From contig CAMWFQ010000009.1 of NCBI GenBank assembly GCA_947173495.1, positions 1 to 64,000 of the forward strand: DNA of 64,000 nt. Direction: 5' to 3'. The stretch comes from an uncultured Lachnospiraceae bacterium (lineage in GTDB: Bacteria > Bacillota > Clostridia > Lachnospirales > Lachnospiraceae). The position numbers and the translations under genes were made by a program. Of this stretch, positions 26,731 to 63,170 are shown in pieces; positions within the stretch are counted from its first letter, which is position 1, and each line of letters begins with the position of its first letter. The notes under the pieces are model-generated. The model was given only the letters and a program-made list of their open reading frames with translations, searched no databases and had not been told where the DNA came from.

Positions 26731-26959
26731 GGGGGCGGATTGCACAAAATGCTCTCTTGTGCCGCTGCGTCAAATGGATTTTCTAAATATTCCGGGGAGG
26801 TTTCGGCATCGAACGCAACCGCCCGCATTCGCCTTCCTGGCTCAGTGCGGGCTTTTCGGAACATCCATGTTCCGAAATTGCTGATTTTCGTACGGAATAT
26901 TAAGAAAATCTCATTTTCCTTCGCAAGGCATCCGAGAGTATTTTGTGCAATCCGCTCCC
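26731..26959. repeat. 229-bp element with 26-bp terminal inverted repeats
   Basis: The left arm 26731-26756 and right arm 26934-26959 are reverse complements at 24 of 26 positions (core GCGGATTGCACAAAAT). Between them lies a small palindrome (TCGGAACATCCATGTTCCGA, 26856-26875). It has no gene: a 97-codon frame at 26710-27003 runs through both arms, lacks a ribosome site and resembles nothing known. Size and ends resemble a MITE-like or non-autonomous mobile repeat. No target-site duplication or transposase is evident. Confidence 0.6.
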
Positions 26960-50751: not shown

Positions 50752-50772
50752 GCAGGGACTTACAGGCAATAG

Positions 50773-50862
50773 CAAATAAATTTGCCATATCAAATAAATT
50801 TGCAATAACAAATAAATTTGCCATATCAAATAAATCTGTCATGTCAGATGAATCTGCCGTTT
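50773..50862. repeat. 18-bp tandem repeat array (5 units)
   Basis: Five head-to-tail copies of CAAATAAATTTGCCATAT and variants, exact period 18 bp; units 1 and 3 are identical and units 4-5 are diverged. Each unit contains the imperfect palindrome CAAAT-AA-ATTTG. The array lies in the 303-bp spacer between the binding protein and permeases of importer 4. The rest of the spacer has a GCGCTG/CAGCGC-type hairpin (about 50919-50940) and no gene. Confidence 0.8.
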
Positions 50863-52849: not shown

Positions 52850-52867
52850 GCGTACAGAGGCAGGCGC

Positions 52868-53015
52868 GCAGAGGCCCGGCATGGCAGGGCAGAGGATGCA
52901 GGGCGCAGGAGTCGGACATGGAAGGGCTGAGAAAACAGGATGCAGGAGCCCGGCATGGAAGGACTGAGGACACAGGACGCAGGAGCCCGGTATGGAAGGG
53001 CTGAGGAAACGGAAC
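52868..53015. repeat. 37-bp tandem repeat array (4 units)
   Basis: Four copies with exact 37-bp period (starts 52868, 52905, 52942, 52979); the middle copies share GCAGGAGCCCGGCATGGAAG. The period is not a multiple of three and frames across the array are not gene-like. It lies between the convergent ends of importer 4 and the PocR-AraC gene. The GGAGCCxGG core also occurs in the array at 55348-55523. Confidence 0.8.
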
Positions 53016-53042
53016 ACAGGAGATAAGGGCACAGACGCCGGA

Positions 53043-55353: not shown

Positions 55354-55523
55354 GAGAGTAAGCGGAACCGTAAGGGGCAAGCGTGCGGGAGCTATGAGTG
55401 AGCCGTAGAGGGCGAGCGTGCAGGAGCTATGAGTGGAGCCGTAAGGGTCAAGCGTGTGCGGGAGCCGGGTGTGAAGCGTAAGGGGGCAAGCGTGTGTGGG
55501 AGCCGGGTGTGGAATGTAAGGCA
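55348..55523. repeat. 35-38 bp tandem repeat array
   Basis: Units anchored on GTAAGG/GTAGAGGG begin at 55370, 55405, 55441, 55478 and 55516 (spacings 35, 36, 37, 38), with shared GCAAGCGTG and GGGAGCC. The array begins in the stop region of the first flavoprotein gene (GGAGCCGTAG), which itself looks like a unit end. It sits between two co-oriented flavoprotein genes and has no coding character. Confidence 0.75.
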
Positions 55524-58220: not shown

Positions 58221-58231
58221 AGGAGAATACT

Positions 58232-58393
58232 GTGAAAAATAAATTTTTCACAAACGAACTTGTTCGTTTTGCAAATATTGTGCTGACGCCCAAATTTGCA
58301 GGTGCCGGCAGCAGGGAGGATTATAATGTCATTACCGAAACTATCTTTCCGGGAAAAAAGAATGGACAGGCGGATCGCGGCTTATCAGAGTGA
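58232..58393 (+). CDS. Small ORF, possible remnant of a kinase N-terminus
   Basis: A GTG at 58232 follows AAAGGAG by five bases and opens a 53-codon frame starting MKNKFFTNELVRFANIVLTP. It overlaps the kinase start at 58326 in another frame. The start lies in hairpin-forming DNA (GTGAAAAA/TTTTTCAC at 58232-58251, AACGAAC/GTTCGTT at 58253-58268). Because the kinase lacks transmembrane segments, this could be the leftover beginning of a longer kinase after an internal deletion, or an independent small protein. Confidence 0.35.
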   Translation: MKNKFFTNELVRFANIVLTPKFAGAGSREDYNVITETIFPGKKNGQADRGLSE

Positions 58394-59000
58394 TCTCCTC
58401 GCCACCCACTATGCTGAGGTGGAGAACATGTACCGGCAGATGAGAGGGTGGCGGCATGACTACCGCAACCATATACAGGTGCTGAAGAGCTATCTGGCCA
58501 TGGGAGACGTAGAAGCGGCTTCCGATTATCTGGATGCCCTCAGCGAGGATTTAAGCTCTGTGGATCCGGCACTGAAAACGGGAAATAAAATGATGGATAT
58601 CATCTTAAGCAGCAAGATATCCCTTGCCAGATCAAAGAACATCCGGGTGGAGGCGGATGCCCATGTGCCGGTGGCACTTGCCACTGCCGAGATCGATCTC
58701 TGTGTTATCATTGGGAATCTTTTTGACAATGCCATCGAGGCGTGTATGGCGCTTCCGGAAGAGGAGCGGATGATCCGGGTATATATGGAGATGAAGAATA
58801 CCCAGCTCTATATGTCTTTCACCAACAGCACTGCCTTAAAGAAGCAGAGAAAGGAAAACGGACGTTTCGCCTCAACCAAAGGCGCGGGGCACGGCTGCGG
58901 GCTGGTGCGTATTGATACCATTATAGACAGGTATCAGGGATATATCAGCAGAAACAGCGAGGACGGCGCGTTTACCACGGAGGTTCTGCTGCCCCAGTGA
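58326..59000 (+). CDS. Short soluble GHKL-type histidine kinase
   Basis: 224-residue kinase with no membrane segment: phospho-acceptor region MRGWRHDYRNHIQVLKSYL (His44; the HDYRNH box is typical of AgrC/DcuS-like GHKL kinases) and a GHKL ATPase domain (N-box NLFDNAIEACM, glycine box near GAGHGCGLVRI). Typical relatives have an N-terminal sensor; here it is missing, so it must sense in the cytosol or through a partner. GGAGG site before ATG 58326; the longer frame from 58296 has none. Pairs with the LytTR regulator at 57528. Confidence 0.85.
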   Translation: MSLPKLSFREKRMDRRIAAYQSDLLATHYAEVENMYRQMRGWRHDYRNHIQVLKSYLAMGDVEAASDYLDALSEDLSSVDPALKTGNKMMDIILSSKISLARSKNIRVEADAHVPVALATAEIDLCVIIGNLFDNAIEACMALPEEERMIRVYMEMKNTQLYMSFTNSTALKKQRKENGRFASTKGAGHGCGLVRIDTIIDRYQGYISRNSEDGAFTTEVLLPQ

Positions 59001-59010
59001 AAAGAATTGT

Positions 59011-59041
59011 TTTCATCCCCCCAGTGATGCATTTCGTCCCC
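59011..59041 (+). promoter_or_regulatory. Direct repeats fitting a LytTR-regulator binding site
   Basis: TTTCATCCCC (59011-59020) and TTTCGTCCCC (59032-59041) repeat with a period of exactly 21 bp, i.e. 10-bp boxes with 11 bp between them. LytTR proteins bind two direct repeats of 9-10 bp on one face of DNA with this kind of spacing. The site overlaps the terminator at 59037 and lies about 90 bp before the first ABC gene. A possible extended -10 is TGTTATGCT near 59067. Confidence 0.6.
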
Positions 59042-59066
59042 GGAATGTATTGCCGGGGGATTTTTA
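59037..59066 (+). terminator. Terminator between the two-component genes and ABC exporter
   Basis: TCCCCGG and CCGGGGGA pair around AATGTATTG and are followed by TTTTTA. A plausible rho-independent terminator, so the ABC exporter genes should have their own promoter. Confidence 0.65.
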
Positions 59067-59131
59067 TGTTATGCTGTTTACGATAGTACGCCGCATGGGG
59101 AGGCTTTGCGAAAGGAGATGGACTTACGAAA

Positions 59132-60970: not shown

Positions 60971-60990
60971 TGCAGATACAGGAGGTTACT

Positions 60991-61092
60991 ATGAAAGTCA
61001 AAGACTTTCATAGTATGGATGGCCATGCGGCCCGCGAAAGCGGCAGGCTGAGCATGCTGGGAGGTTACTATGAAAGTCAAAGACTTTCATAG
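60991..61092 (+). CDS. Leader ORF 1 from the 79-bp repeat
   Basis: 33-codon frame starting at the first repeat ATG with GGAGG five bases upstream: MKVKDFHSMDGHAARESGRL and 13 more residues (SMLGGYYESQRLS). It ends at a TAG in repeat copy 2 because the period of 79 shifts the frame by one. Its first 21 codons equal the ABC protein start, except for one Gly/Ser change. It may be a by-product of duplication or a translated leader. Confidence 0.4.
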   Translation: MKVKDFHSMDGHAARESGRLSMLGGYYESQRLS

Positions 61093-61171
61093 TATGGATG
61101 GCCATGCGGCCCGCGAAAGCGGCAGGCTGAGCATGCTGGGAGGTTACTATGAAAGTCAAAGACTTTCATAG
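61070..61171 (+). CDS. Leader ORF 2 from the 79-bp repeat
   Basis: Identical in design to leader ORF 1: ATG in repeat copy 2, 33 codons, TAG in copy 3, about 20 bases after the ABC start ATG at 61149. It overlaps ORF 1 by 23 bp, so ribosomes finishing ORF 2 would be released right at the true start. Confidence 0.4.
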   Translation: MKVKDFHSMDGHAARESGRLSMLGGYYESQRLS

Positions 61172-63170
61172 TATGGATAGCCATGCGGCCCGCGAAAGCG
61201 GCAGGCTGAGCATGATGGAGGATTACAGTAAAATGAGGGATCATGAGAAAGAAAAAAGAGAAGGCCTTTCATGGAAGGAAGTCTTTCTGCTGAACAAAAG
61301 GGCGGTTCTGCTCTGGTGCAGGGAATGCCCTAAGCTGTTTATATCTACTGCGCTCCATTCGGCCATTGCCGCCCTGGTTCCCTATCTGACCCTCTGTTTT
61401 TCCGCCGGACTTCTGGACGAGCTGGCAGGGGCAAGAAGACGGGAGGAGCTGATCCGGTGGATCATGATCCTGCTGGTGGCGGATGCAGGGGCTTATCTGC
61501 TGAAGGCTCTGGTATTCAGATGGAAGGAGGCTCTTTCGGCCACCATGTATTATCACGGAGAGGCACGGATCTCGCGAAAGATTCTGTCCATGGATTTCTG
61601 TGCAGCGGATGATACAGCCACTCATGAGCTGCTGAGCAGGATCAGGCAGCGTGAGCATTGGAGCGGTTGGGGAATCCACAGGATTTACTGGCATTTTGAG
61701 CGTCTGACAGAGGAGCTGTTCCGGATCATCGGAGCGGCGGCGCTTACCGTTTCCCTGTTTTGTCTGCCGGTGCCGGAAGAGGCAGGGAGGCTTGCCCTGC
61801 TGAACAGTCCGCTGTTTATCCTTTTACTGGCACTGGTAATGGCAGGAGTGACACTGCTTTCCCCTTATCTGTCTACCCTGGCGGAAATGTGTGTGATGGA
61901 TCATGATGAAAGTATGAAACGGGGAAACCGGAATTATTTTTTCTGCCTGGATCTGTTCAGGGAGGAAAAAAGAGCGCTGGATATGCGTATTTACAGACAG
62001 GATCTTTTCGGACTGAAAAGAATAAGGAAAACGGCAAGCGTGAAGGACGGAGTACTTCGCGATGTGATCAGGGACGCCAGAGGACGGATGGGCATCCTTT
62101 TCGGGCTTTCGGCAGCAACTTCCCGGCTGTTCATGGGAGCGGCCTATCTGTTTGTGTGTTTAAAAGCCTGGGGCGGCGCTTTCGGAGTGGGCTCCGTGAC
62201 CCGGTATATCGGCGCCATCACGGCTCTTTCCGCTGGCCTGTCCGGGGTGCTGAAGGTGATAGGTGAGGCCAGAGTGAACAGCGATACGCTGAAGATGACC
62301 TTCGAATTTCTGGATATTCCCAACGAGATGTATCAGGGCTCCCTGACAGTGGAAAAACGTTCCGACAGAAAGTATGAGGTGGAGTTCCGGAATGTGAGCT
62401 TCCGATATCCCCATACACAAATCTGGGCACTTAAGAACATCTCGCTGAAGTTCAGAGTGGGAGAGCGGCTGGCGGTGGTGGGGCAGAACGGTTCCGGCAA
62501 GACCACCTTTATCAAGCTCCTGTGCCGTCTCTATGATCCCACAGAAGGAGAAATTCTGTTAAATGGGATCGATATCCGCAAGTACAATTACCGTGAATAT
62601 CTTGGTATTTTTTCTGTGGTATTCCAGGATTTCCAGCTTCTTGCCATGAGCCTGGGTGAGAATGTGGCGGCCGGGAGCAGCAGAGGTTATGACAGGAAGA
62701 GGGCCGAAGCATGTATCCGCATGGCGGGCCTTTCAGAGTGGTTCGCTGCAAGAGAAGAGGGTCTGGACACCATTCTTTATAAGGACCTGGACGAAAAGGG
62801 GGTTAAAATTTCCGGAGGCGAGGCTCAGAAGATCGCCATTGCCCGTTCTCTGTACCATGACGCTCCTTTTATCATTCTGGACGAACCTACGGCAGCCTTA
62901 GATCCGGTGGCAGAGTATGAGATCTACACAAAGTTCAATGAGATCGTGGGAAATCGGACAGCCATTTACATCAGCCACAGGCTTACCTCCTGCCGGTTCT
63001 GCGATGAAATCGTCGTGTTTCATGAAGGCAGCATTCTGCAGAAAGGAAGCCATGAGGAACTGCTCTCTGAGGAGGGCGGGAAATACTATGAGCTGTGGAG
63101 TGCACAGGCGCAATATTATGGGAAGGAGCAGCCTTCCCTTGACAGCCCTCATAAAGTCATCTATAGTTAA
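61149..63170 (+). CDS. ABC exporter half-transporter B
   Basis: 673-residue fused permease-ATPase. Residues 1-60 are hydrophilic and largely repeat-derived. Six hydrophobic segments follow (about 60-370). The nucleotide-binding domain has Walker A VVGQNGSGKTT (near residue 443), signature ISGGEAQKI, Walker B FIILDEPTAAL and H-loop YISHRLTS, all intact. Heterodimer partner is at 59132. Start is the third repeat ATG (61149); the internal ATGs near 61211-61214 (start MMEDYSKMRD) or at 61234 are alternatives if the repeat-derived part is not translated. Confidence 0.88.
   Translation: MKVKDFHSMDSHAARESGRLSMMEDYSKMRDHEKEKREGLSWKEVFLLNKRAVLLWCRECPKLFISTALHSAIAALVPYLTLCFSAGLLDELAGARRREELIRWIMILLVADAGAYLLKALVFRWKEALSATMYYHGEARISRKILSMDFCAADDTATHELLSRIRQREHWSGWGIHRIYWHFERLTEELFRIIGAAALTVSLFCLPVPEEAGRLALLNSPLFILLLALVMAGVTLLSPYLSTLAEMCVMDHDESMKRGNRNYFFCLDLFREEKRALDMRIYRQDLFGLKRIRKTASVKDGVLRDVIRDARGRMGILFGLSAATSRLFMGAAYLFVCLKAWGGAFGVGSVTRYIGAITALSAGLSGVLKVIGEARVNSDTLKMTFEFLDIPNEMYQGSLTVEKRSDRKYEVEFRNVSFRYPHTQIWALKNISLKFRVGERLAVVGQNGSGKTTFIKLLCRLYDPTEGEILLNGIDIRKYNYREYLGIFSVVFQDFQLLAMSLGENVAAGSSRGYDRKRAEACIRMAGLSEWFAAREEGLDTILYKDLDEKGVKISGGEAQKIAIARSLYHDAPFIILDEPTAALDPVAEYEIYTKFNEIVGNRTAIYISHRLTSCRFCDEIVVFHEGSILQKGSHEELLSEEGGKYYELWSAQAQYYGKEQPSLDSPHKVIYS

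What the first reader, a model, noticed from the sequence alone, without database searches (positions are those of the whole stretch)
60981..61217. Triplicated leader that hides the ABC start codon in a hairpin
Each 79-bp copy has a ribosome site directly followed by a perfect 13-bp hairpin whose stem contains the ATG. The first two copies encode 33-codon ORFs ending inside the next copy, the second only about 20 bases past the true start. Ribosomes reading one unit would melt the next hairpin, giving a chain of coupled reinitiation. Copy number could therefore set exporter level. I know of no described system with this layout.
Basis: partly seen in the sequence, partly recalled or inferred. 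Interest (0 to 1): 0.8.

Follow-up and report, generated by a model that had tools for sequence, protein, structure and literature searches.

The report
Mobile hairpin repeats at gene starts
The triple repeat in front of an exporter gene is a local multiplication of a short hairpin element scattered through this gut bacterium's genome, one of a group of elements that can settle between a gene's ribosome-binding site and its start codon while bringing a replacement ribosome site.

Summary
In detail: three 79-bp copies, a perfect 13-bp hairpin in each, two 33-codon ORFs. It is not a private leader of the exporter. The unit ("A") is a dispersed repeat: 27 copies or fragments on 18 contigs of this genome, none found in 39 relatives. 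The exporter's native start is most likely ATG 61233, downstream of the array; close relatives start there and lack the repeat. So the hairpins do not hide the native start.

A second element ("B") with the same plan lies in this operon before the kinase gene (58228-58325), at about 22 places in this genome and in other Lachnospiraceae. B typically lies between a gene's own Shine-Dalgarno (SD) and its start codon and ends in its own GGAGG; empty sites in relatives support insertion. The element ORF is mostly open to the gene start (27/33 B, 18/21 A), but uORF ends are not tuned for coupling.

Best reading: mobile, SD-carrying hairpin elements that insert at translation-initiation sites, tandemly duplicated here. 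Mover and regulatory effect are unknown.

The parts
60981..61059 (+). element A, copy 1 (its first 5 bases GGAGG are probably the exporter's native Shine-Dalgarno, kept upstream of the insertion: inference)
61060..61138 (+). element A, copy 2, identical to copy 1
61139..61222 (+). element A, copy 3, running into the GGAGG at 61217-61221
60987..61015 (+). hairpin 1 of copy 1, 13 bp, loop AAA; the same at 61066-61094 and 61145-61173
61014..61056 (+). second hairpin of copy 1 (outer CATG-type pairs with inner GC-rich pairs), from the consensus fold of 21 A copies; repeated in copies 2 and 3
60991..61092 (+). element ORF 1, 33 codons, overlaps the ATG of ORF 2 by 23 nt
61070..61171 (+). element ORF 2, 33 codons, overlaps ATG 61149 by 23 nt
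61149..61232 (+). element ORF 3: in frame with the exporter gene, so a 28-residue N-terminal extension is possible
61217..61221 (+). GGAGG before the most likely native exporter start (element 3' end merged with the native leader)
61233..63170 (+). ABC exporter half 2 from its most likely native start, 645 aa
59132..60970 (+). ABC exporter half 1, 612 aa
58228..58325 (+). element B, between an AAAGGAGA stretch (overlapping the response-regulator stop) and the kinase start, ending GGGAGGATTATA
58326..59000 (+). GHKL-type histidine kinase, 224 aa
57528..58220 (+). LytTR response regulator, 230 aa

Best explanation
60981-61222 is one insertion of a small dispersed element (A, 79-bp period) into the ribosome-binding region of the second exporter gene, later multiplied in place to three copies. 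A belongs to a group of short (79 to about 150 bp), hairpin-rich elements in these Lachnospiraceae with a shared plan: 5'-TTACTRTGAAA + hairpin(s) ... GRGG + short spacer-3'. The clearest family, B, typically sits between a gene's native SD and its start codon, so the native SD now faces the element's own start codon while the gene start is served by the element's terminal GGAGG. This would let the insertion be tolerated: ribosomes can load directly at the new SD, and ribosomes loaded at the old SD can translate the element ORF through the hairpins to the gene start. SHOWN: dispersal, boundaries, position between SD and start (B), sites without the element in relatives, open frames, tandem copies. 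INFERRED: mobility (from dispersal plus empty sites), ribosome transit, in-place duplication. UNKNOWN: what moves the elements, and any effect on exporter level.
For: 27 full or partial copies on 18 contigs in this genome, 0 of 39 relatives at E <= 0.001. Tandem pairs at two other loci. Copies 1 and 2 identical, and the two array copies put in the alignment share a T at column 29 found in only one other of 21 rows, pointing to local duplication. Sites without the element: ilvB-ilvN spacer 101 nt here with A, against 11-41 nt in the 20 of 22 relatives that could be parsed (the other 2 look short too); Soj/ParA here has B between AAAGGAAG and ATG, while the 21 other orthologues printed have an (A)AGG-type SD, a short spacer and ATG; the kinase start lacks B in 5 of 5 relatives printed. 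blastn with A, B and C consensus finds no hit in the 24 exporter loci, 22 ilvN loci and 22 Soj-type loci of relatives. SD test: 24 of 33 B left flanks have a 5-nt or longer anti-SD match in the adjacent 14 nt, against 1, 2, 2, 1 and 4 of 33 in the next five windows upstream. With a B query lacking the 3' end, 17 of 21 copies have a GGRG-type SD followed 5-12 nt later by an ATG that opens an ORF of 100 aa or more; of the other 4, L071 and L108 have an A element or part of one in between, L074 has a diverged end and L111 (minus strand) no clear start. Open frames 27/33 and 18/21. Helix next to the B SD: 87.9% of cells paired, covariation score reached by 1 of 500 shuffles.
Against: Only B is closely tied to start codons. 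A copies lie mainly between genes in either orientation; besides this array, L068, L069 and L071 are the A loci whose 3' end I read as running directly into the start codon of a long ORF. No terminal inverted repeats were found and no transposase partner: Y1_Tnp is absent here and the 20 kin loci fetched with it hold no A/B/C match. Copies of one family are related, so open-frame counts are not independent, and 6 of 33 B and 3 of 21 A copies break the frame. uORF ends show no tuning to the gene start. Covariation is modest: a 3-column slide scores 0.183 against 0.230 and has more double changes (13 against 6 cells); the A stems show one compensatory change; RNAalifold predicted no pairs on the B alignment.
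Confidence: 0.74

Rival explanations
1. Dedicated regulatory leader: copy number and coupled reinitiation tune exporter translation.
For: ORF 1 and ORF 2 each overlap the next ATG by 23 nt; strong SDs and stable hairpins. Element frames are open more often than the other frames.
Against: The unit lies whole or in part at 22 other loci beside unrelated genes; close relatives start the exporter at the site equivalent to 61233 without any repeat; uORF ends are not tuned to gene starts.
Confidence: 0.1
2. B (and perhaps A) is a genuine cis-regulatory RNA that binds a common regulator, and the copies form a regulon spread by duplication.
For: B lies just before a start codon in 17 of 21 copies counted strictly, has a partly covarying helix next to the SD and is seen before what looks like the same gene in several species (L077, L232, L236; L234, L246; N-termini compared by eye).
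Against: Downstream genes are mixed (ParA, BlaI-like, asparaginase-like, TetR-like, ABC, nitroreductase-like, named by eye and recall); no Rfam family matches; presence varies between orthologues.
Confidence: 0.13
3. Ordinary MITE-like intergenic debris: position at starts reflects only purging of harmful insertions, with no targeting and no translational role.
For: Short, no coding capacity for a mover, mostly intergenic, adjoining copies.
Against: Precise placement of B between SD and start in many genes and species is hard to get by purging alone.
Confidence: 0.2
4. Assembly artefact of the copy number.
For: Identical copies 1 and 2; draft assembly of 52 contigs.
Against: Copy 3 differs, flanks are unique, and two other loci also hold tandem pairs. 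The dispersed element does not depend on the array.
Confidence: 0.05

Closest known systems
BOX elements of Streptococcus pneumoniae (with RUP and SPRITE)
   Same: Short, species-expanded, modular, hairpin-forming repeats with a tandemly multiplied unit; elements cluster or insert into one another; some carry expressed ORFs (PMC3049150 and PMC10969869, passages seen).
   Different: The passages seen do not place BOX between SD and start codon, and the BOX ORFs there lacked good SD candidates (PMC3049150); the elements here end in an SD.
Rickettsia palindromic elements (RPE)
   Same: Dispersed palindromic elements with an open frame that can extend host proteins in frame (PMC10969869 passage).
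   Different: RPEs are noted there for insertion within genes and for a conserved peptide; here the elements lie before start codons or between genes.
TAACTGA direct repeats of marine Beggiatoaceae
   Same: Dispersed repeats placed just upstream of start codons, suspected of a role in translation (PMC4679880 passages).
   Different: Heptamer arrays that overlap or stand in for the SD; here 79-104 bp hairpin units that carry an SD.
REP elements with RAYT transposases / IS200-IS605 derivatives
   Same: Palindrome-bearing repeats; TTAC-like target letters (comparison recalled, not from a call).
   Different: No Y1 transposase in this genome and no match of the elements at 20 Y1 loci of kin.

Membership tests
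MITE (miniature inverted-repeat transposable element) | short, multi-copy, dispersed, no transposase gene | tested here: met
   79-104 bp for A and B; 27 A copies or fragments and about 22 B places in this genome
MITE (miniature inverted-repeat transposable element) | terminal inverted repeats | tested here: not met
   between the outer 20 nt of the consensus elements the longest inverted match is 3-5 nt; the direct match is 11 nt for A and 5 nt for B and C; inverted repeats are internal
MITE (miniature inverted-repeat transposable element) | target-site duplication | tested here: inconclusive
   leaders differ between species too much to place the ends to the base
REP/RAYT or IS200-IS605 derivative | Y1 transposase in the genome or a Y1 locus with matching ends | tested here: not met
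   0 in own genome (draft, 97% complete); 21 of 37 genus genomes have Y1, but the 20 loci taken show no A/B/C match
BOX-like composite repeat | modular units that adjoin head-to-tail with tandem multiplication | tested here: met
   A-A, B-A, A-B and C-A neighbours in one orientation, by inspection
BOX-like composite repeat | sequence relationship to pneumococcal BOX | not tested
   no BOX sequence was compared
Known cis-regulatory RNA family | match to an Rfam model | tested here: not met
   no match over A or B of the window at gathering score or at E <= 0.5
Rickettsia palindromic element | conserved peptide inserted inside protein genes | tested here: not met
   insertions precede start codons or lie mostly between genes; loop codons vary and frames break in some copies

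The most novel reading that the evidence does not exclude
Lachnospiraceae carry a class of mobile elements, of several unrelated sequences but one plan, that home to the junction between Shine-Dalgarno and start codon. Each inserts a self-contained cassette (start codon, open hairpin-rich mini-ORF, new SD), so the host gene stays expressed while gaining a leader ORF through which its translation can be routed. Stacking them, as in the three copies here, builds chains of overlapping leader ORFs.
Probability: 0.45. Interest if true: 0.82.

Novelty: new variant of a known kind. Interest (0 to 1): 0.62.

Why it matters
Small interspersed repeats are usually treated as intergenic debris or promoter modifiers. 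A group that sits exactly between SD and start codon and brings its own SD would be a natural, repeated experiment in re-wiring translation initiation across a common gut family. It would mislead start-codon annotation (element ORFs read as N-termini, as with 61149 here) and would raise a testable question: what mechanism chooses translation-initiation sites as DNA targets?

Tried and rejected
Transposase partner: Y1_Tnp absent in own genome; 21 of 37 genus genomes have it, but 20 loci taken show no element match. Phage carriage: exact 40-nt and 33-nt core patterns gave 0 hits in viral contigs. Further families by end motif: TTACTRTGAAA occurs 47 times against 6 for the reversed control, but of 17 further loci printed only L192 (C-type) and L201 (a B variant, already a weak hit) are clearly elements; most others look like coding sequence, so the motif alone is not diagnostic. 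Leader peptide: rejected as a conserved product (loop codons vary, frames break), although frames are open more than the other two. Tight stop-start coupling: not supported. A first, wrongly registered structure for the B helix gave nothing and RNAalifold predicted no pairs on that alignment; the register taken from the single-sequence fold was then counted. A uORF scan that read CTG instead of GTG was discarded (second part) and redone. A liberal SD count (29 of 33) was replaced by the stricter one with controls. A loose count of genes after B (21 of 21, which took the longest ORF in a 130-nt stretch) was replaced by a strict one (17 of 21).

Literature: searches (open-access PMC library only) listed no description of these elements; that is no proof of absence. 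Papers seen: PMC3049150, PMC10969869, PMC6429828 and PMC4679880 as passages; the others only as listings.

Full report
OBSERVATION. The window holds three head-to-tail 79-bp units at 60981-61217, each with a perfect 13-bp hairpin. Copies 1 and 2 are identical and copy 3 differs at two positions. The stretch folds far better than shuffles (z -7.58; 0 of 200). The two 33-codon ORFs are as described and each overlaps the next ATG by 23 nt.

IT IS A DISPERSED REPEAT. Searching the window's own genome (4.58 Mb, 52 contigs) with one unit gives 35 matches: 27 full or partial sense copies on 18 contigs, at 87-97% identity outside the array, and 8 self-hits of the palindrome on the other strand. The same search finds none in 39 relatives, 23 of them in the same genus. 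I fetched the other copies with about 2 kb on each side. Aligned (22 of the 27; five short fragments left out), they define an element starting at TTACTATGAAAGTC-nnn-GACTTTCATAG and ending in CTGAGCATGATGGAGGTTTACT. So the GGAGG seen before copies 2 and 3 is the 3' end of the preceding copy. Two other loci have tandem pairs (L064, L065). Copies 1 and 2 of the array are identical, and both array rows put in the alignment carry a T at column 29 that only one other of 21 rows has. I infer one insertion followed by duplication in place.

THE EXPORTER'S START. The 24 exporter relatives examined (L009-L032, of 54 loci found) show no repeat: by inspection of the stretch upstream of the match (for L031 that stretch lies inside the gene) and by blastn of A, B and C against the whole loci. 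In the closest ones, L009-L011 (71-76% identity), a purine-rich SD is followed by ATG-(K/R)-(S/N)-K, which corresponds to ATG 61233 with GGAGG at 61217-61221. Homology of L009 begins at residue 40 of the long ORF, 11 residues after this ATG. I therefore take 61233 as the native start; the frame from 61149 is an element ORF that happens to be in frame. The ACAGGAGG before copy 1 looks like the native SD left on the upstream side (inference).

A SECOND FAMILY IN THE SAME OPERON. Copies of A often adjoin another repeat, B (TACTGTGAAAAATAAATTTTTCACA...GGTGTTGGCAGCATGGAGGATTAYTATG). B has 22 places of 46 nt or more in the genome, one of them at 58228-58325, between the response regulator and the kinase of this same operon. 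A third family, C, has 14 matches. All three share, by inspection, the end plan TTACTRTGAAA ... GRGGTTTACT or close variants of it. B or parts of it occur in 11 of 23 same-genus relatives and 1 of 16 further ones (several of these are short parts only) and, with a short form of B, in 24 of 299 genomes of the family including own (only three candidates per genome were scored, and the weakest hits are 23 nt long).

B SITS BETWEEN SD AND START. The query ended before the SD, so it does not select for one. Of the 21 copies printed there, 17 have a GGRG-type SD followed 5-12 nt later by an ATG that opens an ORF of 100 aa or more. In L071 and L108 an A element or part of one lies between B and the gene, L074 has a diverged 3' end, and L111 (minus strand) has no clear start there. 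On the left side, 24 of 33 copies with a definable end have a 5-nt or longer anti-SD match in the adjacent 14 nt, against 1, 2, 2, 1 and 4 of 33 in the five windows further upstream. In a wider set of 61 copies from own and other genomes, 54 have a start codon exactly at the element end (this set required a match close to the 3' end, so it is biased).

SITES WITHOUT THE ELEMENT. ilvN: the ilvB-ilvN spacer is 101 nt here, with one A element between two GGAGGTTTACTATGAAA stretches; 20 of 22 relatives parse to 11-41 nt and the other two also look short. Soj/ParA: here AAAGGAAG - B - ATGGGAAG; in the 21 other orthologues read, an (A)AGG-type SD, a short spacer and ATGGG(A/T), without the element (L283, a paralogue, and the lower-scoring L284-L290 were left out). 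Kinase: here AAAGGAGA - B - ATG; 5 of 5 relatives printed have no B. blastn finds no A, B or C in any of these relatives' loci. These favour insertion between SD and start over ancestral leaders, although some B sites seem shared by two or three species (for example the gene at L077, L232, L236), so not all are recent.

FRAME AND STRUCTURE. The frame of the element's own start codon is open to the gene start in 27 of 33 B copies (other frames 1 and 1) and through the element in 18 of 21 A copies (0 and 1). The two main B length classes differ by a multiple of three (76 against 94 nt; about 52 nt in the shortest form at L236-L240, counted by eye). Against a conserved peptide: loop codons of A vary, L064 and L080 break the A frame, and six of 33 B copies have stops, several with hairpins that still look intact. 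Against tuned coupling: B uORFs end at a median of +29 nt relative to the gene start, 12 of 23 within -10..+60, against a median of 7 nt and 20 of 23 within 60 nt for the other out-of-frame reading; 5 more run in frame into the gene. The helix beside the B SD pairs in 87.9% of cells and its covariation score (0.230) is reached by 1 of 500 shuffles, but a 3-column slide gives 0.183 with more double changes, and RNAalifold predicted no pairs. The A stems pair in 97.5% of cells with one compensatory change.

MECHANISM, STEP BY STEP. Shown: dispersed copies, placement, sites without the element, terminal GGAGG, open frames, tandem copies. Inferred: the elements move; the element's SD keeps the downstream gene translated; ribosomes from the native SD can cross the hairpins through the open frame; arrays form by local duplication at the repeated end sequence. 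One economical idea, untested, is that a circular or single-stranded form whose junction reads GGAGG-TTTACT-ATGAAA recombines with a gene's own SD-start sequence, which would by itself put the insertion in exactly this place. No mover was found: no Y1 transposase here and no link to Y1 loci in kin; other mover families were not searched.

COMPARISON. The elements work most like pneumococcal BOX repeats in modularity and tandem growth (PMC3049150, passages) and resemble Rickettsia palindromic elements in carrying an open frame (PMC10969869, passages). Repeats just upstream of start codons are known as TAACTGA arrays in Beggiatoaceae (PMC4679880, passages), but those overlap or stand in for the SD. 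Placement between SD and start, with a carried SD, is what I did not find described in the ten searches listed. Membership of MITEs fails on terminal inverted repeats; REP/RAYT fails on the transposase.

NAMES. Gene names given for B neighbours and for ilvB, ilvN and Soj/ParA were read by eye from sequence and recall, not searched.

VERDICT. The larger finding is a group of small elements that occupy translation-initiation sites. Interest 0.62; most novel reading at probability 0.45.

Noticed in passing
58228-58325: Element B between the response-regulator stop and the kinase start; the same gene cluster thus carries two unrelated elements at two gene junctions.
   Followed up: yes
L076, L080, L123, L125, L126, L192: Third dispersed family C (14 matches) with similar end motifs but longer hairpins; the copies read do not end at start codons.
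   Followed up: partly
A copies genome-wide: The 3-nt loop of the first hairpin varies (AAA, TTC, AGG, AAG and others) while the stem stays nearly fixed, suggesting subfamilies.
   Followed up: no
59000-59131: Between kinase and exporter genes lies a GC-rich inverted repeat followed by T-rich sequence (CCCCGG...CCGGGGGATTTTTAT, by eye), so the exporter pair may be a separate transcription unit; only a sub-threshold Rfam hit.
   Followed up: no
26762-26926 (-): TwoAYGGAY RNA, RF01731, 115 bits.
   Followed up: no
50766-50858, 52867-53022, 55364-55521: Other tandem repeats with 18-, 37- and 38-bp periods.
   Followed up: no
58326-59000: The GHKL kinase is only 224 aa, its Pfam hits being a Spo0B-type helical domain and ATPase domains; in the closest relatives (L009, L010) the match also starts at residue 1.
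   Followed up: no
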